DNA of 64,000 nt from the NCBI GenBank assembly GCA_945878865.1, contig CAMCUD010000016.1:1-64000 (forward strand), given 5' to 3'. This DNA is from Bifidobacterium breve. Lineage in GTDB: Bacteria; Actinomycetota; Thermoleophilia; Solirubrobacterales; Solirubrobacteraceae. The notes beneath the pieces were generated by a model, which was not told the origin of the DNA, did not search any database, and saw only the letters and a program-made list of their open reading frames with translations. Numbering within the stretch: the first letter of the stretch is position 1; each line of letters begins with the position of its first letter. The translations under genes were made by a program, and so were the position numbers. Shown one piece after another: positions 35,546 through 44,115 of this stretch.

Positions 35546-37831
35546 ATGCCCCGCGTCCGCCTCCTCACCAGCGCCGCGCTCGCCGCCGCCCTCCTCCTCC
35601 CTGCCGCCGACGCCCACGCGCGTTCGATCCTCGTCGCCTCCGGCGACGCCGCCGCGACCATCACCGATGCCTCGACGAACAAGGTCCTCGGCCGGGTTCC
35701 CGTCGGCGGCCGGACCATCGCCGCCGCCGTCTCCCCCGACGGCAACCGCGGGTACGTCGCGACCCAGAACCGCGTGGTCGCCATCGACATGGGCGGCCGG
35801 ACGTCCGCCGGCACCTTCACCGCGGGCGGCGCGATCCGGGCCTTGGCGCTGACGAGCGATGGCACCCGGCTGTTCGTCGCGCGCCGCGGCGGCATCGAGA
35901 TCGTCGACCCGGCCACGCTGCAGCGCGTCGGGGCCATCTCGCTCGGCGGCGCGACCCCAGGCGCGATCGCCGTCGCCCCGGGCGGTCAGCGTGCCGCCGT
36001 CACGCTGAAGGACAAGATCGGCCTCATCGACGTGGCCGGCAGCCGGCTCGCCCGGCGGGCGAAGAGCGGCACGCTCGGCGACGTCGCCTTCGCCCCCGGC
36101 GGCGCGCTCTGGGCGACGTCCCCGAAGGGGGAGCTGCGCAACTACGACCGGGTGACCGGCAAGCTCCTGCGACGGGTAAAGCTCAAGGCGGGTGTCGGCG
36201 CGGGCCTGGCGATCTCGGCGGACGGCCGGCGCGCGCTCGTCGGCGCGACGCGCACCAGCAAGGCGACCGCGGTCGTCGACCTCGCGGGGCGCCGCCTGCT
36301 CGCGCGGGTGAAGACGGGCGCCGGCCCCGGCCACCCCGCGTTCTCGCCGGACACCCTGCGCGCGTACGTCGCCGATGAGCGCGGCGGCACGATCTCCGTG
36401 CTGGCGACGCGCTCGTGGAAGCGCCTGACCATGCAGAAGCTCCCGCGCGGCGCGCGCCCAGTGGCGCTGCAGGTCCAGCCCGGACTCGCGCTGAAGCGCG
36501 GCACGGAGGGCAACGACCAGCTCATCGGCTCGCGCCTGAACGACCGGCTCGAGGGTCTCGGGGGCGACGACCTCCTGCGCGGCTTCCGTGGCAACGATCA
36601 GCTCGACGGCGGCGCCGGCAACGACAACCTCGACGGCGGGCCGGGCAACGACCAGCTCGTCGGCGGCGACGGTGACGACCGGATGTCGAGCGGTGCCGGC
36701 AACGACACGATCGCCGGCGGTGTCGGCAACGACGTCGCATTCGGCGGAACGGGCAACGACAACGTCAACGGCGACGACGGCAGCGACTACCTCGACGGCG
36801 GCGACGGCGACGATGAGGTGTTCGGCGGCGCCGGCGACGACAAGATCAACGAGGCCGGCCTCGGCAATGACCCGATGCTCGACGGCGGGCCGGGCAACGA
36901 CTACATCAACGGCAACCGCGGGACCGACAAGATCGTCGGCGGCGAGGGCAACGACACGCTCTTCGGCGGGCCGGGCGGCGAGATCATCGACGCGGGACCG
37001 GGCGCGGACACCGTCGACGGCGGCACCGCCGGCGACAACATCTACGGGCGTGACGGCGATGACGCGCTGCGCGGCGACGCCGGCCGGGACACGATCTACG
37101 GGGCCGACGGCAATGACACGATCGACGGCGGCTCGGGCGACGACACGCTCTCGGGCGGCAACGGCGGGGACGAGATCGTCGCCGGCCCGGGCGAGGACAC
37201 GGTCAACGGCGGCAACGGCGTCGACTCGATCCGCGTCGCCGACGGCGACCGGGACATCGTCGACTGCGGCACGGGCAAGGACACCGTCTACGTCGAAGAG
37301 GACGCCCCCACGCGCGACACGCTCCGCCGCTGCGAGACCGTCGTCAAGGTGCCGGCCGAGCCCTCGACCGACGCGCCGCCCGCCTCGAACACCATCATCG
37401 GCACGGCGATCGCCGACGTCCTCAACGGCACGCCGGGCAAGGACACGCTCCTCGGGGGCGACGGCGACGACCAGCTCTTCGGCAACGACGGCGACGACTA
37501 CGTCGACGGCGAGAACGGCAACGACACCGTCCGCGGCGGCCCCGGCAACGACGAGCTCTACGGCCGCTTCGGCGACGACCTCGTCCTCGGCAACGAGGGC
37601 GACGACAAGCTCAACGGCGACCGTGGCGCGGACACGCTCAACGGCGGTCCGGGGAACGACCAGATCTTCGGCGGCTTCGACGACGACGTCATCTCCGGCG
37701 AGGACGGCGACGACCGCATCCAGGTCGTGGGCCTCGGGGTCGATCGCGTCGACTGCGGGGAGGGCAACGACACGGTGTTCGCCGGACCGGAGGACGTCAT
37801 CGCCCCGAACTGCGAGAACGTCCGGATCTGA
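35546..37831 (+). CDS. Secreted beta-propeller/RTX-like calcium-binding repeat protein
   Basis: 761 aa with a signal peptide (to about residue 25, ending AHA). Residues ~28-315 form a propeller of about 40-residue blades (TIAAAVSPDGNRGYVAT, IRALALTSDGTRLFVA, GLAISADGRRALVGAT). From ~320 to the end run many nonapeptide repeats of GGxGNDxLx type (DGGAGNDNLDGGPGND and variants), split into two blocks by a linker around VPAEPSTDAPPASN. Such repeats fold as a Ca2+-binding parallel beta-roll outside the cell. Gram-negative RTX proteins leave by type I secretion; here a Sec signal is used instead. No catalytic domain is seen. Confidence 0.9.
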   Translation: MPRVRLLTSAALAAALLLPAADAHARSILVASGDAAATITDASTNKVLGRVPVGGRTIAAAVSPDGNRGYVATQNRVVAIDMGGRTSAGTFTAGGAIRALALTSDGTRLFVARRGGIEIVDPATLQRVGAISLGGATPGAIAVAPGGQRAAVTLKDKIGLIDVAGSRLARRAKSGTLGDVAFAPGGALWATSPKGELRNYDRVTGKLLRRVKLKAGVGAGLAISADGRRALVGATRTSKATAVVDLAGRRLLARVKTGAGPGHPAFSPDTLRAYVADERGGTISVLATRSWKRLTMQKLPRGARPVALQVQPGLALKRGTEGNDQLIGSRLNDRLEGLGGDDLLRGFRGNDQLDGGAGNDNLDGGPGNDQLVGGDGDDRMSSGAGNDTIAGGVGNDVAFGGTGNDNVNGDDGSDYLDGGDGDDEVFGGAGDDKINEAGLGNDPMLDGGPGNDYINGNRGTDKIVGGEGNDTLFGGPGGEIIDAGPGADTVDGGTAGDNIYGRDGDDALRGDAGRDTIYGADGNDTIDGGSGDDTLSGGNGGDEIVAGPGEDTVNGGNGVDSIRVADGDRDIVDCGTGKDTVYVEEDAPTRDTLRRCETVVKVPAEPSTDAPPASNTIIGTAIADVLNGTPGKDTLLGGDGDDQLFGNDGDDYVDGENGNDTVRGGPGNDELYGRFGDDLVLGNEGDDKLNGDRGADTLNGGPGNDQIFGGFDDDVISGEDGDDRIQVVGLGVDRVDCGEGNDTVFAGPEDVIAPNCENVRI
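36510..37780 (+). repeat. Coding tandem repeat (RTX-like nonapeptides)
   Basis: Degenerate 27-bp units (ggcggc...ggcaacgac) encode the calcium-binding nonapeptides of the surrounding gene. Units differ at wobble positions, so the array is old. It could mislead assembly or read mapping. Confidence 0.8.
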
Positions 37832-38419
37832 TCAACGCAGGCCGTCGAGGAGCGCCTCGACGGCCACGCGCCAGCGGCGGTCGACCGACGCCTTCGATGT
37901 GCCCAGCCGCCGCGCGTTCTCCGCGGCCGCCAGTCCCTGGATGAGCGATACGTACGCGTGCGCGATGTCGGTCGCGTCACCGCGAAGGATGCGCGCGTCG
38001 ATCGCGCGGCGAACGCGGGCGACGACGAGGTCACGGACATCGGCGCCGGCCTGCGACTCCTCCGGCCCCGGCGAGAAGTCGGCGAACGGCCGGGAGAACA
38101 TCACCCCGGCCAGCTCCGGGTGCGCGACGAGGAACGCGCGGTAGTCGTCGGCGAGCGCCAGCAGATCCGCCCGTGGATCGTCGCTCTCCGGCCGCGCCGC
38201 GAGCCGTTCCGCGAGCCGGCGGAACCCGGCGAAGAACACCGCGCGCAGCAGGCCTGCCCGGTTGCCGAAGAGCTCGTAGACCGCCGGCGTGGAGGTCGAG
38301 GCCTCCCGCGCGATCGCCCGCGTGGAGAACCCGGCCGCCCCCTCCCGCGCCAGGAGATCGAGTGCGACATCGAGGACCTGATCACGCAGAACCGGTGTGC
38401 GCTGCTTCGGGCGGGGCAT
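37832..38419 (-). CDS. TetR family transcriptional regulator
   Basis: 195 aa from the ATG at 38419. The TetR helix-turn-helix is clear: VLDVALDLLAREGAAGFSTRAIAREASTSTPAVYELFGNRAGLLRAVFF. The C-terminal ligand domain (residues ~60-195) has no diagnostic motif. Its stop codon directly abuts that of the RTX gene (TGATCA). The promoter region shared with the divergent crotonase gene holds a strong operator, so this regulator very likely controls both itself and that gene. Confidence 0.92.
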   Translation of the reverse strand: MPRPKQRTPVLRDQVLDVALDLLAREGAAGFSTRAIAREASTSTPAVYELFGNRAGLLRAVFFAGFRRLAERLAARPESDDPRADLLALADDYRAFLVAHPELAGVMFSRPFADFSPGPEESQAGADVRDLVVARVRRAIDARILRGDATDIAHAYVSLIQGLAAAENARRLGTSKASVDRRWRVAVEALLDGLR

Positions 38420-38441
38420 GCCAGGCACCTTATCGCTGTTT

Positions 38442-38469
38442 CGTAACACCGTTTCGTAACAGTGTTACG
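38442..38469. promoter_or_regulatory. TetR operator in the tetR/crotonase divergent promoter
   Basis: CGTAACA-G-TGTTACG (38455-38469) is a perfect 7-bp-arm dyad, preceded by a direct copy of the half-site CGTAACA (38442-38448) in the context GTTTCGTAACA. The dyad ends 8 bp before the crotonase start codon and 36 bp before the tetR one. Confidence 0.72.
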
Positions 38470-38477
38470 ATATCTCC

Positions 38478-39191
38478 ATGACCTCCCTCCTCCGGTATGA
38501 CCTCACTGACGGCGTCGCGACGATCACGCTCGACGACGGGAAGGCGAACGTCCTCTCCGCCCCGATGCTGCAGGCGCTCCACGGCGCGTTCGACCGCGCG
38601 GAAGCCGATGACGCGGTCGTGCTCGTCACCGGCCGCGCAGGTCGCTTCTCCGCCGGATTCGACCTCGCCACCTTCCAGGCAGGGCCCGAGCCGCTCCTGG
38701 AGATGCTCACGCTCGGTGGCACGCTCACCGAGCGGGTCCTGGCGTTCCCGCGGCCAGTCGTCGCCGCCGTCAGCGGCCACGCGATCGCCGCCGGCGCCTT
38801 CATCCCCCTCGCCGCCGACCTGCGCCTCGGTGCCGACGGCCCGTTCCAGATCGGGCTGAACGAGACCCGCATCGGGCTCACGCTTCCTGCATTCGTGCAG
38901 GCGCTCGCCCGCGAGCGACTTGCACCGTCCTGGCTGCCGCGCGCCGCGATCTGCGGCGAGCTGCTGCAGGGCAGCGACGCAGTGTCGGCTGGCTATCTCG
39001 ACCGGATCGTGGCGTCGGACGAGCTGATGGACGCCGCCCGCGCCGCCGCGCTGGAGCTGCGCGCCGTCGAGGCGCGCGCCTACGCGGAGACGAAGCTGAT
39101 GGTGCGCGCCGACGTGCTGGCAGACGTGCGCGCCGGGATCGATGCGGAGTTCACCCGCGAGCGGTTCGGGCTCGCCACCGCGGCCGCCTGA
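38478..39191 (+). CDS. Enoyl-CoA hydratase/isomerase (crotonase) family protein
   Basis: 237 aa. The crotonase fold has VATITLDDGKANVLSAPMLQALH, the oxyanion segment AGRFSAGFDLATF, and SGHAIAAGAFIPLAADLRLG. The usual catalytic Glu of GGGxEL is missing (AGAFIPL). A Glu in LNETRIGL may correspond to the second Glu. So it may hydrolyse, isomerise or act on a nonstandard acyl-CoA rather than hydrate. It is divergent from, and probably repressed by, the adjacent TetR. Confidence 0.88.
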   Translation: MTSLLRYDLTDGVATITLDDGKANVLSAPMLQALHGAFDRAEADDAVVLVTGRAGRFSAGFDLATFQAGPEPLLEMLTLGGTLTERVLAFPRPVVAAVSGHAIAAGAFIPLAADLRLGADGPFQIGLNETRIGLTLPAFVQALARERLAPSWLPRAAICGELLQGSDAVSAGYLDRIVASDELMDAARAAALELRAVEARAYAETKLMVRADVLADVRAGIDAEFTRERFGLATAAA

Positions 39192-39224: not shown

Positions 39225-39272
39225 GGTGAAGAACGTTCACCTTCTTGACTGTCCCGTACGCCTGGGTACGGT
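39225..39272 (+). promoter_or_regulatory. Operator-like dyad and sigma-70-type promoter for the polyester-hydrolase gene
   Basis: GGTGAA-GAACG-TTCACC (39225-39241) is immediately followed by a -35 TTGACT (39245-39250), a 16-bp spacer and a -10-like TACGGT (39267-39272). An ~80-nt leader leads to the start codon at 39355. The dyad abuts the -35 box, suiting an activator or a repressor. The rest of 39192-39354 has no ORF. Confidence 0.55.
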
Positions 39273-39354
39273 CCGCCGCAACGGCGCAGAGGGGGCGTCG
39301 CCCGGGGCCGCCGCCAGGACGGCGGCCCCGGGGGCAACAAGCAAGGAGAGAGCC

Positions 39355-40215
39355 ATGAAGTCCCTGTCCCGACTGCTGGTCGCGATCGTCGCGGCCTGCG
39401 GTATCGCCGCGCCTGCGAGCGCGGCCGTCACCCCGTCCATCCGCGGCCCGGAACCGACGCTCGACACGATCTCCGCCCCGAGCGGCCCGTACGAGGTGCG
39501 CGCGATCCAGATCCCGGACAGCGCGACCCCGGGGTTCGGCTCGGCGACGATCACGTACCCGGCCTCGACCGCCGAAGGGCGGTTCGGAGGCATCGCCGTC
39601 TCCCCCGGGTTCGTGTCGTACGAGTCGGCGATCTCGTGGTTCGGCCCCCGGCTGGCCTCGCACGGCTTCGTGGTCATCACGTACTCGACGCAGACGATCT
39701 TCGACCAACCCGCGGCACGGGGCCGGCAGTTGCTCGCCGCGCTCGACTACCTCACGAAGACGAGCACCGTCGCCGCACGCGTCGACCCGTCGCGTCTGGC
39801 GGTCGTGGGGCACTCGATGGGCGGCGGCGGCACCCTCGAGGCCGCCAAGGCACGCCGCTCGCTGAAGGCGGCGGTGGCCCTCACGCCGTGGGACATGGAC
39901 AAGACCTGGCCCGAGATCACGACCCCGTCGCTCATCGTCAGCGCGCAGAACGACACGGTGGCACCGGCTGCGCAGCACGCGACCCGCTTCTACCAGACCC
40001 TCCCCGCGTCGACCCCGAAGAGCCACCTCCGGCTCGCCGGTGTCGGTCATGGGGCTCCGAACTCGCCACAGACGACGATCGCCGTGGCCACCATTTCGTG
40101 GCTGAAGCGCTTCGTCGACGGCGACACCCGCTACACCCAGTTCTTGTGTCCGCGGATCCCCGCGCCGCCCGGTGACGTGGCCGGCTACGACACAACCTGT
40201 CCGGGCTGGGGGTAG
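39355..40215 (+). CDS. Secreted PETase/cutinase-like polyester hydrolase (alpha/beta hydrolase)
   Basis: 286 aa with a signal peptide (about 1-23), start behind AAGGAGAG. The residues that define bacterial cutinases and PET hydrolases are present. The triad is Ser154 (GHSMGGGG), Asp200 (QNDTVAP) and His232 (GVGHGAPN). Oxyanion residues are Phe86 (PGFVSYESA) and Met155. The substrate-cleft Trp179 lies in TPWD. WFGPRLASHGFVVIT and DQPAARGRQLLAALDYL match the family closely. A C-terminal Cys pair (FLCPR and TTCPGW) matches the conserved disulfide. Like thermophilic cutinases it has His before Ser, and His208/Phe212 where the Ideonella enzyme has Ser/Ile. It lacks that enzyme's extra disulfide. 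The natural substrate may be cutin, polyhydroxyester or lipid. Confidence 0.9.
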   Translation: MKSLSRLLVAIVAACGIAAPASAAVTPSIRGPEPTLDTISAPSGPYEVRAIQIPDSATPGFGSATITYPASTAEGRFGGIAVSPGFVSYESAISWFGPRLASHGFVVITYSTQTIFDQPAARGRQLLAALDYLTKTSTVAARVDPSRLAVVGHSMGGGGTLEAAKARRSLKAAVALTPWDMDKTWPEITTPSLIVSAQNDTVAPAAQHATRFYQTLPASTPKSHLRLAGVGHGAPNSPQTTIAVATISWLKRFVDGDTRYTQFLCPRIPAPPGDVAGYDTTCPGWG

Positions 40216-40270: not shown

Positions 40271-40945
40271 TCACAACGGAGGCAGCGGTTCCGGGTGCGC
40301 TTCGAAGTGCGCAGCGGCCCGGCGGATGAGGTCGCGGCCCCGCTCGATCGATCGGTCGGCCAACTCCTGCGGGATCGCCGACCCGTCACGGCGGATCATC
40401 AGCGACGTCATGCCGTACCAGAACGCCCACAGGAACGTGATCATCTCGTCGATCGGCACCCGTGGCGTCTCACCGGCGTCCATCGCCTCCTTCAGGTCCG
40501 TGGCGACCTGGAGGACGAGCAGCTGTGTCCGGCGCGACAGGTCCGCCTGGATCTCCTTGAGCTCCGGGCTGTCGTCCGGCTGCATCGCCCGCAGGACCAT
40601 GAAGCGGTACGAGACGGGGTGCTCGCGCGCGAACGCGCTGTAGGCGTCCCCGACGGCGTACACGCGCATGAGCGGCGACGCATTCGCCCGGGCCTCCTCC
40701 AGCCGTGCCTCGAACTCGTCGATCGCCTCCGTGGTGAACGCGAGCAGGATGCCCTGCTTGTTCGTGAAGTGCTTGTACAGCGTGCCGACCGAGACGCCCG
40801 CGCCCTCGGCGATGTCCTCGATGCGCACCTGGCTGACGGCCGTCTGCGAGAAGAGCTCCCCCGCGACGTCGAGGATCAGGCGCCGTGTCCGGGCTCCGCG
40901 GGCGGTCGTCGCGGGCCTTGCCGTGCTGTCGTCCTGCAGTCCCAT
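40271..40945 (-). CDS. TetR family transcriptional regulator
   Basis: 224 aa from the ATG at 40945. The HTH is RRLILDVAGELFSQTAVSQVRIEDIAEGAGVSVGTLYKHFTNKQGILLAF. The C-terminal domain (ELADRSIERGRDLIRRA near the end) shows the layout of actinobacterial lipid- or acyl-responsive TetRs. It is 38 bp downstream of the VOC gene on the same strand, possibly the last cistron of glpK-plsC-VOC-tetR. It is convergent with the polyester-hydrolase gene; whether it controls that gene is unknown. Confidence 0.9.
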   Translation of the reverse strand: MGLQDDSTARPATTARGARTRRLILDVAGELFSQTAVSQVRIEDIAEGAGVSVGTLYKHFTNKQGILLAFTTEAIDEFEARLEEARANASPLMRVYAVGDAYSAFAREHPVSYRFMVLRAMQPDDSPELKEIQADLSRRTQLLVLQVATDLKEAMDAGETPRVPIDEMITFLWAFWYGMTSLMIRRDGSAIPQELADRSIERGRDLIRRAAAHFEAHPEPLPPL

Positions 40946-40983: not shown

Positions 40984-41796
40984 CTACGCGAGCACCGGCA
41001 TCACGCGCACCCCCGCCGGCTGGCGCTCGGCGCCGTCCAGCCGGCGCATCGCGTCGCCGAGCGTGTCCTTGTCGGGGTAGCCAATCGCGACGGTGTCCAG
41101 CCCCGGCAGCTCGGGCGCACCGGGCGGCGCGCCCTTGGAGTGCCACGTGTTCAGCCCGACGTGGTGGTGATACCCGCCCGCACTGACGAACGCGGCTTCG
41201 CTGCCGAAGTGCTGCATGAGCTCGAAGCCCAGGCAGTCGACCCAGAACCGCAGCGCCGCGGGCAGGTCGGCGACCTGGAGATGGACATGTCCGATCTCGA
41301 CGTCGTGGGCGTCACTGCCGTCGGCGGCGTCGAGGATCGCGTTGAGGTCGAGCGGCCGGGTGACCATCCCCACCCGCTCGCCCGGCCCGCCAGCAGGCCA
41401 CGTCTCGCGCGGGCGGTCGTGGTAGAGCTCGACGCCGTTGCCGTCGGGGTCGTCGAGGTACAGCGCCTCGGACACCGCGTGGTCGGACGCGCCACTCAGC
41501 GGATAGCGCGCGTCGAGCAACCGGGAGAAGACCTCGCCCAGCCCGCCGAGCGTCGGCCAGAGAAGCGCGGTGTGGAACAACCCGGTGGCCTCCTTGGGCG
41601 CCGTCCCGGGCATGCTGCTCGGCCGCAGGACGACCAGCGGGTGGTCGCCGCCAGGGGCGGCCAGGGTCGCGCCATCGGCCCCTTCGCGCAGCAGGTCGAG
41701 GCCGAGCAGCTCCCCGTAGAACCCCACCGAGCGCGAGACATCCGAGACGCGCAGGACGACATGGTCGATGTGCACCCGCGGGTCGACTGGCTCCAT
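40984..41796 (-). CDS. VOC (glyoxalase/extradiol-dioxygenase-like) protein
   Basis: 270 aa with two vicinal-oxygen-chelate modules. Module 1 is IDHVVLRVSDVSRSVGFYGELLGL to DPDGNGVELYHDRP. Module 2 is IGHVHLQVADLPAALRFWVDCLGFEL with GGYHHHVGLNTW. The metal ligands of catechol-2,3-dioxygenase types (His, His, Glu) can be placed at His11-region, GGYHHH and the late ELYH, though the Glu in module 1 is in the first half. CatE-like ring-cleavage or a related role is likely. It lies between plsC and tetR on the same strand. Confidence 0.82.
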   Translation of the reverse strand: MEPVDPRVHIDHVVLRVSDVSRSVGFYGELLGLDLLREGADGATLAAPGGDHPLVVLRPSSMPGTAPKEATGLFHTALLWPTLGGLGEVFSRLLDARYPLSGASDHAVSEALYLDDPDGNGVELYHDRPRETWPAGGPGERVGMVTRPLDLNAILDAADGSDAHDVEIGHVHLQVADLPAALRFWVDCLGFELMQHFGSEAAFVSAGGYHHHVGLNTWHSKGAPPGAPELPGLDTVAIGYPDKDTLGDAMRRLDGAERQPAGVRVMPVLA

Positions 41797-41859
41797 GTGC
41801 GGGGGACGGTATCCGGTGCGACGAGCAGCGGCGGCAGTTCCCCCGCTGGCGCGTCGCCG

Positions 41860-42627
41860 CTACGCCTGTTCGTCGCGCCGCAGGCGGGCGGCGATGCCCG
41901 CGCGGCCGTGCTCGCGCAGCTCGCCGTAGAGCGTCTTGATCTCGGCGTAGATCTCCTCCGCGGCGGCCTGCGACTGCTCGCGCGTCGGGTCGAGCACGCG
42001 CGGGAAGCGCAGCGGCTCGCCGTAGAGCACCGTGACCTGGGGGAACTCCCCGCGCTTCCAGTTGCGCACCTTCGAGGAGCCGAAGATCGCGGTCGGAACG
42101 ACGGGCGCGCCCGACTCGAGCGCCAGCCGGCCGATGCCCGGCTTCGGCTTCTCGGCGAGATCGCCGGTGCGCGAACGCCCGCCCTCGCAGTACATGCACA
42201 GCGTGGAGCCCCGCTCGAGCACGGTGTGCGCGGTGATGAACGCGTCGTCGTCACGCTCACCGCGGCGCACCGGGAACACGCCGCCGTGCGTGTAGACGAA
42301 CTGCAGCGGCCGGGCGAACAGCTGGGACTTCGCCATGAACTGCACCTTGCGCCGCAGCGCGGCGCCGGCGAAGAAGTGGTCCATGAACGAGAAGTGGTTC
42401 GGCGCGAGGATCACCGGCCCGCTCTGCGGGACGAGCTCGGAGCGGAAGACCTTCAGCCGGAAGAACGAGTACGAGTAGAGCGTGACGCCGACGCGGACGA
42501 TCTCGTACATCGCGTCGGGGCTCTTCGTGCGCGTGCGCGTGTGGAAGCGGTCGAAGTACGACTTGGGACGCGGGTCGCGGTAGACCTGCTCCTTCATCGC
42601 GACGAGGTTGTCCGTCTGGCCGGCCAT
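41860..42627 (-). CDS. 1-acyl-sn-glycerol-3-phosphate acyltransferase family protein (PlsC-like)
   Basis: 255 aa. The acyltransferase motif I NHFSFMDHFF (NHx4D) and motif III CEGGRSRTGDL (usually EGTRS) are present. A P-rich motif (GAPVVPTAIFGS) lies nearby, and an N-terminal hydrophobic patch may dip into the membrane. It transfers an acyl group to lysophosphatidate or a similar glycerol ester. The gene starts 15 bp after glpK, so glycerol phosphorylation and phospholipid or triacylglycerol synthesis may be co-regulated (inference). Confidence 0.9.
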   Translation of the reverse strand: MAGQTDNLVAMKEQVYRDPRPKSYFDRFHTRTRTKSPDAMYEIVRVGVTLYSYSFFRLKVFRSELVPQSGPVILAPNHFSFMDHFFAGAALRRKVQFMAKSQLFARPLQFVYTHGGVFPVRRGERDDDAFITAHTVLERGSTLCMYCEGGRSRTGDLAEKPKPGIGRLALESGAPVVPTAIFGSSKVRNWKRGEFPQVTVLYGEPLRFPRVLDPTREQSQAAAEEIYAEIKTLYGELREHGRAGIAARLRRDEQA

Positions 42628-42642
42628 GGCGACGAGATGATG

Positions 42643-44115
42643 TCAGCTGCGCGCGCGATCCAGCGCGCGGTGCCATCCGACCAGCAGCGCCTCGCGTTCG
42701 GCGGCCTGCATCCTTGGCTCGTAGCGGGCCTCCTCACGCCAGGTCCGCGACACGTCGCGCTGCGTCCACAGCCCCACCCCGACCCCGGCGAGCCGGGCGG
42801 CGCCCATCGCCGTGGTCTCGTGCACGTGGGGGACGACGACGGGCACGCCGAGCACGTCGGCCTGGAACTGCATGAGCCAGCGGTTGACCGTCGCGCCGCC
42901 GTCGACGCGCAGCTCCTCCAGCCGTGGCGCGCCTGCGGCCTCCATCGCCCGCACGGCGTCGACCGCCTGGTAGGCGATGGCCTCGAGGGTCGCGCGCGCG
43001 AGGTGTGCGCGCGTGGAGCCGCGGGTCAGCCCGACGATCGTGCCCCGCGCGTATGGGTCCCAGTGCGGCGACCCGAGGCCGGTGAGCGCGGGGACGAAGT
43101 AGACGCCGTCGTTGCCGCTCAGTGACGCGGCGAGAGGTTCGGTCTCGGCGGCGACCTCGATGAGGCCGAGCCCGTCGCGCAGCCACTGCACCGCGGCGCC
43201 GGTCACGAAGATCGAGGCCTCCAGCGCATACTGCGTGCGCGCCCCGATGCGCCACGCGATGGTCGAGAGCAGCCCCTCAGCGGGCGGCGGCGGCGCGTCC
43301 CCGGTGTTCATGAGCACGAAGGAGCCCGTGCCGTAGGTGTTCTTGCCGAGCCCCGGGTCGAGACACGCCTGCCCGTAGAGCGCCGCATGCTGATCGCCGG
43401 CAACGCCGCTCACGGGCACGCCGCCCCACCCCGGCAGCGAGGCGTCGCGCACGCGACCGAGCTCGCCGATCGAAGGGCGGATCTCCGGCAGCGCCTCGCG
43501 TGGGATCTCGCCGAGCAGCGCGAGCAGCTCGTCGTCCCAGTCTCCGGTCTGCAGGTTGCAGAGCAGGGTGCGCGACGCGTTGCTCGCGTCGGTGACGTGC
43601 TCGCCGCAGAGGTTCCAGATGAGCCAGCTGTCGACCGTGCCGATCTTCGCGCGACCGGCCCGCATCCGTTCGCGCAGCCCGTCGACGTGGTCGAGCAGCC
43701 ACGCGATCTTCGTGCCCGAGAAGTACGGGTCGAGCACCAGGCCGGTGCGCTCGCGGATCAGCGGCTCGTGCCCGGCCTCGCGCAGTTCGTCGCATCGCGC
43801 AGCGGTCCGCCGGTCCTGCCAGACCAGCGCGCGATGCAGCGGCTGCCCGGTCTCGGGATCCCACACGCAGACGGTCTCGCGCTGGTTCGTGATCCCGATC
43901 GCCTGCAGACCTCCCTCGGGCACGCCGGCGTCCTCGAGCGCCTCCAGCGCGACATCGCGGGTGACCTCCCAGAGCTCGCGCGCGTCGTGCTCGACCCAGC
44001 CCGGCTGCGGGAAGTGCTGGCGGAACTCGCGGTAGGCGCGCCCGGCGAGCTCCCCCTCCTCGTCGAAGACGAGGCAGGTCGAGCCGGTCGTGCCCTGGTC
44101 GATGGCCAGGATCAT
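42643..44115 (-). CDS. glpK: Glycerol kinase
   Basis: 490 aa, full length. FGGY-family signatures: ILAIDQGTTGSTCLVFD (phosphate 1), GITNQRETVCVWD, the substrate loop ALVWQDRRTAARCD, VSGVAGDQHAALYGQACL, YGTGSFVLMNTG and LRVDGGATVNRWLMQFQADVLG (adenosine region). It phosphorylates glycerol with ATP to sn-glycerol-3-phosphate. No glpF or glpD is adjacent; plsC follows at once. Upstream is an unusual structured 470-bp intergenic region. Confidence 0.96.
   Translation of the reverse strand: MILAIDQGTTGSTCLVFDEEGELAGRAYREFRQHFPQPGWVEHDARELWEVTRDVALEALEDAGVPEGGLQAIGITNQRETVCVWDPETGQPLHRALVWQDRRTAARCDELREAGHEPLIRERTGLVLDPYFSGTKIAWLLDHVDGLRERMRAGRAKIGTVDSWLIWNLCGEHVTDASNASRTLLCNLQTGDWDDELLALLGEIPREALPEIRPSIGELGRVRDASLPGWGGVPVSGVAGDQHAALYGQACLDPGLGKNTYGTGSFVLMNTGDAPPPPAEGLLSTIAWRIGARTQYALEASIFVTGAAVQWLRDGLGLIEVAAETEPLAASLSGNDGVYFVPALTGLGSPHWDPYARGTIVGLTRGSTRAHLARATLEAIAYQAVDAVRAMEAAGAPRLEELRVDGGATVNRWLMQFQADVLGVPVVVPHVHETTAMGAARLAGVGVGLWTQRDVSRTWREEARYEPRMQAAEREALLVGWHRALDRARS

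What the first reader, a model, noticed from the sequence alone, without database searches (positions are those of the whole stretch)
39355..40215. PETase/cutinase-like polyester hydrolase in a Thermoleophilia-type genome
Seen: triad Ser154-Asp200-His232, Trp179, Met155, the C-terminal Cys pair and close match to the family core. It combines cutinase-type residues (His153, His208, Phe212) with Phe86 at the oxyanion site and no second disulfide. Known: such proteins hydrolyse cutin and, in some cases, PET. Few members are described from this lineage, so it is a worthwhile sequence-space point.
Basis: partly seen in the sequence, partly recalled or inferred. Interest (0 to 1): 0.7.

Follow-up and report, generated by a model that had tools for sequence, protein, structure and literature searches.

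The report
Ordinary PETase-family enzyme, unusual lineage
This gene encodes a secreted enzyme of the well-known family that cuts fats, plant cutin and some plastics; it looks like a normal early-branching relative from a little-sampled actinobacterium, notable mainly for a naturally small amino acid at a cleft position that engineers shrink to speed up PET breakdown.

Summary
It is an intact, probably secreted alpha/beta-hydrolase of Pfam PETase (PF12740, 318 bits against a cut-off of 28), closest in the PDB to Streptomyces exfoliatus lipase and a Thermomonospora curvata hydrolase (57% and 56%). It matches LCC F243, TfCut2 F209 and PHL7 L210, where small engineered residues raise PET activity. 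The tree places it just outside the well-supported clade holding every reference enzyme. The family is rare in its class (8 of 399 genomes, all in one taxonomic family) against 77 of 395 in another class of the phylum. Best reading: type I cutinase/lipase-like polyesterase; natural substrates probably acylglycerols or cutin-like esters; PET activity plausible but unshown. New member of a known kind; modest interest.

The parts
39355..40215 (+). CDS, probably secreted PETase/cutinase-like alpha/beta hydrolase, 286 aa
39355..39423 (+). Sec-type signal peptide (residues 1-23, MKSLSRLLVAIVAACGIAAPASA|AV; cleavage site inferred)
   Evidence: read from the sequence (positive n-region, hydrophobic core, ASA|A); pLDDT under 50 there; no predictor run
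39430..40203 (+). catalytic domain (residues 26-283)
   Evidence: PDB and Pfam alignments
39610..39612 (+). Phe86, aromatic clamp/oxyanion residue of subsite I
39814..39816 (+). nucleophile Ser154 (GHSMG)
39952..39954 (+). catalytic Asp200
40048..40050 (+). catalytic His232
40051..40053 (+). Gly233, subsite II position of LCC F243, TfCut2 F209, PHL7 L210 and IsPETase S238
40147..40200 (+). C-terminal Cys265-Cys282 pair (conserved disulfide by homology)
   Evidence: 181 of 193 rows keep both
39343..39348 (+). Shine-Dalgarno AAGGAG
   Evidence: sequence
39254..39271 (.). perfect inverted repeat CCGTAC-N6-GTACGG, candidate operator
   Evidence: single site in the 4.96-Mb genome; function inferred
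39301..39332 (+). 13-bp GC hairpin just before the ribosome-binding site
38478..39191 (+). neighbour: crotonase/enoyl-CoA hydratase family protein (PRK06213, above cut-off)
37832..38449 (-). neighbour: TetR-type regulator
40271..40942 (-). neighbour: TetR-type regulator

Best explanation
A secreted type I cutinase/lipase-like polyesterase of the PF12740 (PETase) family. Ser154, activated by His232 and Asp200, attacks ester carbonyls held between Phe86 and Trp179. The oxyanion is held by backbone NH groups of Phe86 and Met155, and the acyl-enzyme is then hydrolysed. Natural substrates are most likely acylglycerols and cutin/suberin-like or other aliphatic polyesters, with hydroxyethyl terephthalates such as BHET as accidental substrates. 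Shown here: gene, family, predicted fold, triad, residue identities. Inferred: secretion, reaction, substrate, oxyanion geometry. Whether it attacks PET film is open (my estimate about 0.5 for detectable activity).
For: PF12740 at 318 bits against a cut-off of 28. PDB sequence matches to 1JFR, 7YKQ, PET40, Cut190, Thermobifida cutinases and PHL7 at E 1e-76 to 1e-95. AF2 model (pLDDT 84.7) superposes on 1JFR at 1.2 A over 257 columns, TM 0.96 by target. All type I active-site residues kept, and both IsPETase-type insertions and the second disulfide absent. Close kin have tested activities: Streptomyces LipA cleaves BHET and tributyrin (PMC11169514), and Amycolatopsis AML cleaves PCL and PBS (PMC7851449). 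Neighbours include a crotonase and, further on, glycerol kinase, which fits acylglycerol/fatty-acid use but is weak evidence.
Against: No activity data. It branches outside the clade holding the reference enzymes and has changes near the cleft with few or no precedents: Val87 and Tyr110 in no other row, Gly233 in six others. AML, also with Phe at position 86, did not attack PET at 30 C, and ScLipA had little or no effect on PET film, so membership does not guarantee PET activity.
Confidence: 0.87

Rival explanations
1. It is a genuine PET hydrolase whose natural Gly233 opens subsite II, giving PET activity above that of its Phe-bearing relatives.
For: Gly233 sits where F209A/S in TfCut2, L210T/S/A in PHL7 and F243T/I/G in BhrPETase raise PET activity (PMC6831586; PMC10076380; PMC10869840). 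His153, Trp179, His208 and Phe212 are kept.
Against: Those gains were made in thermostable PET-active scaffolds, and the change at F243 lowered stability there. Here the neighbouring residues Val87, Val230 and Gly231 also differ, so the effect may not carry over. The lineage lies outside the clade with the tested references.
Confidence: 0.2
2. It is a narrow esterase or lipase for acylglycerols or other small esters, with no polymer activity.
For: Nearest solved relative by structure is named lipase (1JFR); crotonase and glycerol kinase lie close by; it falls short of the BHET-hydrolase equivalog cut-off (376 against 520 bits).
Against: The lidless fold (no extra domain in the model) and the full type I cleft are those of enzymes that usually attack at least polycaprolactone; SM14est and AML do.
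Confidence: 0.25
3. The gene was acquired by horizontal transfer from Streptomyces- or Nocardioides-like actinomycetes (a claim about origin, compatible with any of the functional readings).
For: Identity to Streptomyces and Nocardioides proteins (56-61%) exceeds that to the copies of its two congeners (46-48%). The flanking crotonase and TetR are not found in either congener at E 1e-30 and no shared neighbourhood appears.
Against: The tree does not nest it inside any actinomycete clade; it sits between them and the other copies of its own family, with all family copies on one side of an (unsupported) branch. Holding it with its congeners is not rejected (p-AU 0.33). GC3 matches its neighbours.
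Confidence: 0.2

Closest known systems
Streptomyces exfoliatus lipase (PDB 1JFR) and Streptomyces LipA
   Same: 57% identity to 1JFR; same triad, Phe at the clamp position, His/His/Phe set, one C-terminal Cys pair; model superposes at 1.2 A
   Different: Gly233 where 1JFR has Phe; Val87, Tyr110, Val230-Gly231; branches outside the Streptomyces clade
PHL7/PES-H1 (PDB 7NEI, 7CUV)
   Same: type I; Phe at the clamp; non-Phe residue at the PHL7 position 210
   Different: Leu there rather than Gly; 49% identity; PHL7 is a proven thermostable PET hydrolase
LCC and Thermobifida cutinases
   Same: type I cleft residues and fold
   Different: Tyr at the clamp, Phe at 243/209; 51% identity; proven PET activity
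Ideonella sakaiensis PETase (type II)
   Same: triad, Met, Trp185 equivalent, small residue at 238
   Different: 40% identity; query has His153, His208, Phe212, no second disulfide and no helix/loop insertions
Homologs of the two congeners (L005, L006)
   Same: same genus, same family PF12740
   Different: 46-48% identity, different neighbourhood, Phe after the catalytic His

Membership tests
PF12740 PETase family | profile match over curated cut-off | tested here: met
   318 bits against 28, residues 24-282
PF12740 PETase family | Ser-Asp-His triad in GHSMG context | tested here: met
   S154/D200/H232
Type I (cutinase-like) PET hydrolase group | His before Ser, His and Phe beside the clamp Trp (H153, H208, F212) | tested here: met
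Type I (cutinase-like) PET hydrolase group | single C-terminal disulfide pair, no second Cys pair | tested here: met
   C265/C282 present, A197/A234; the bond itself is not testable here
Type I (cutinase-like) PET hydrolase group | no extended loop after beta8 and no helix-2 extension | tested here: met
   alignment with IsPETase
Type I (cutinase-like) PET hydrolase group | Phe after the catalytic His (called strictly conserved in type I by PMC10076380, although PHL7 itself has Leu) | tested here: not met
   Gly233; accepted exceptions exist (Leu in PHL7 and SM14est), so I treat it as variation inside the group, not a defining feature
Clade of characterised PET hydrolases | falls inside the clade that holds the tested enzymes | tested here: not met
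   outside the 38-row clade (100/99); holding it with the PET hydrolase references is close to rejected, p-AU 0.063
Type II PETase (IsPETase) | second disulfide, Trp before Ser, Ser/Ile near the wobbling Trp | tested here: not met
BHET hydrolase BdeA (NF051441) | equivalog cut-off 520 bits | tested here: not met
   376 bits
PET hydrolase by activity | hydrolysis of PET | not testable with these tools
   needs purified protein

The most novel reading that the evidence does not exclude
A deep-branching type I polyesterase lineage that evolved a glycine at the LCC F243/TfCut2 F209 position on its own while keeping the stabilising His/His/Phe set, giving a naturally opened subsite II and useful PET or polyester activity.
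Probability: 0.15. Interest if true: 0.45.

Novelty: new member of a known kind. Interest (0 to 1): 0.25.

Why it matters
It adds a branch just outside the clade from which the reference PET hydrolases come, in a class where the family is rare. A natural Gly at a heavily engineered subsite II position gives a ready test of whether evolution uses the same cleft-opening change that engineers found. Beyond that it is a routine family member.

Tried and rejected
Mixed-type active site: rejected, the combination is the family norm. Gly233 as unique: it looked unique in 110 rows, but 193 rows gave six more, five of them divergent paralogs lacking the clamp Trp, so only 'rare' is claimed. Lipoprotein anchoring through Cys15 (VAAC): considered; the stretch between Arg6 and the would-be lipobox is too short by pattern rules recalled from memory, so Sec signal peptidase I is preferred. 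MHETase partner (PF07519) in the own genome: nothing found, but no control rang, so inconclusive. Viral copies: none. Plasmid copies: six weak to moderate matches, none above 60%. Sigma-70 promoter and T-tailed terminator scan: nothing. Naming the genome's class: not possible, the named genome scan returned no relative of the window's own class.

Full report
Observation. The ORF at 39355-40215 (+) encodes 286 residues without interruption, with a ribosome-binding site AAGGAG at 39343-39348 and GC3 of 0.92 like its neighbours. A residue-by-residue check confirms Phe86, His153, Ser154, Met155, Trp179, Asp200, His208, Phe212, His232, Cys265 and Cys282. The first 23 residues read as a Sec signal peptide ending ASA|A; this is judged from sequence, no predictor was run.

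Family. Pfam gives PETase PF12740 at 318 bits against a cut-off of 28. NCBIfam's nearest model is BHET hydrolase at 376 bits, below its equivalog cut-off of 520. In the PDB the best matches are the Thermomonospora curvata hydrolase 7YKQ and Streptomyces exfoliatus lipase 1JFR, then ancestral PETases, PET40, Cut190, PHL7 and the Thermobifida cutinases. The AF2 model (13-row alignment, pLDDT 84.7) superposes on 1JFR at 1.2 A over 257 columns and on most of the well-known PET hydrolases at 1.1-1.6 A.

Is the residue combination unusual? Reference sequences for LCC, IsPETase, Thermobifida cutinase and PES-H1 were recalled and then found identical, end to end, to PDB entries. In an alignment of 193 rows, 155 keep the whole canonical set (Phe/Tyr at 86, His153, Ser154, Met155, Trp179, Asp200, His208, Phe212, His232); Phe at 86 occurs in 69 of them. 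A published survey gives Phe in 46% of core domains at that position (quoted in PMC10213408). Only IsPETase carries the second Cys pair. The query also lacks the IsPETase helix and loop insertions. It is a plain type I cleft, not a hybrid.

Position 233, right after the catalytic His, is Gly. It corresponds to LCC F243, TfCut2 F209, PHL7 L210 and IsPETase S238 by alignment. Among the 155 canonical rows it is Phe in 139, Leu in 7, Ser in 3 and Gly in 2. In TfCut2, F209S and F209A raise PET hydrolysis two- to threefold (PMC10076380 citing earlier work; PMC6831586). In PHL7, smaller residues at 210 raise activity and Phe lowers it. In BhrPETase M2, F243I/T/G and changes at W104 raised activity by 10-34% at a cost in stability (PMC10869840). 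Val87 and Tyr110 are found in no other row. Whether these act together to help or hurt polymer binding is unknown.

Placement. A careful tree of 52 rows puts the query alone between nine divergent copies from its own taxonomic family and a 42-row group of mostly actinomycete proteins; the branch separating the nine from the rest has support 99/90, the one separating query plus nine from the 42 has 93/93. All reference enzymes sit in a 38-row clade (100/99) that excludes the query. Holding the query together with the PET hydrolase references is close to rejected (p-AU 0.063); holding it with its two congeners is not rejected (p-AU 0.33). The tree is unrooted and several branches are long, so descent within the lineage and old transfer both remain open. 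A larger quick tree agrees in outline.

Distribution. In the class of the window's genome 8 of 399 sampled genomes have the family, all in one taxonomic family and three genera; both congeners have a copy, at 46-48% identity and in a different neighbourhood. In the class of another actinobacterium 77 of 395 genomes have it. One 'same phylum' genome (G565) carries a catalytic domain identical to that of Streptomyces aureus, so the window's genome is inferred to lie in Actinomycetota outside the Streptomyces class; 'Thermoleophilia' is consistent with GC 71-76% but was not confirmed by name. No paper in the library pairs Thermoleophilia with PET hydrolase or Solirubrobacter with PET-degrading.

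Neighbourhood. A TetR gene (37832-38449, -), a crotonase (38478-39191, +), the hydrolase and a second TetR gene (40271-40942, -) lie together. Crotonase and the second TetR are not found in either congener at E 1e-30. Further on the minus strand is glycerol kinase at 42643-44115. A perfect inverted repeat CCGTAC-N6-GTACGG at 39254-39271, the only one in the genome, followed by a 13-bp hairpin, lies ahead of the hydrolase; operator function is a guess. The setting suits lipid or fatty-acyl ester use but proves nothing about substrate.

Function. By homology: acyl-enzyme ester hydrolysis by Ser154-His232-Asp200. Tested relatives range from PET-active (PHL7, PET40, Cut190) through BHET- and tributyrin-active with little effect on PET (ScLipA; PMC11169514) to PCL/PBS-active without PET activity at 30 C (AML; PMC7851449). 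Aliphatic polyester and acylglycerol hydrolysis is therefore the safest prediction; PET activity is roughly even odds and unshown.

Verdict. It is a new member of a known kind with one rare cleft residue that merits a simple mutant test.

Noticed in passing
39254-39271: Perfect 18-bp inverted repeat CCGTACGCCTGGGTACGG, the only such site in the 4.96-Mb genome, about 85 bp ahead of the hydrolase start; candidate operator for one of the two flanking TetR regulators.
   Followed up: partly
39301-39332: 13-bp all-GC hairpin directly ahead of the ribosome-binding site; 5' UTR fold more stable than shuffles (z -2.1).
   Followed up: partly
35546-37831: 761-aa predicted secreted protein joining a beta-propeller-like N-terminal part to many RTX-type calcium-binding nonapeptide repeats (Pfam HemolysinCabind, 10 stretches).
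   Followed up: no
40984-44115: Minus-strand run of a VOC dioxygenase-like gene, an acyltransferase-like gene (both named from sequence only; no NCBIfam match at 1e-20) and glycerol kinase GlpK, behind the TetR gene.
   Followed up: partly
L137 (G921:C2:414833-415618): A second homolog with the full canonical type I site and Gly after the catalytic His, 52% identical to the query; other Gly rows (L027, L185, L190, L194, L196) have lost the clamp Trp and look like divergent paralogs.
   Followed up: no
L015, L016, L017, L018 (G238): One genome of the same taxonomic family carries four PF12740 copies.
   Followed up: no
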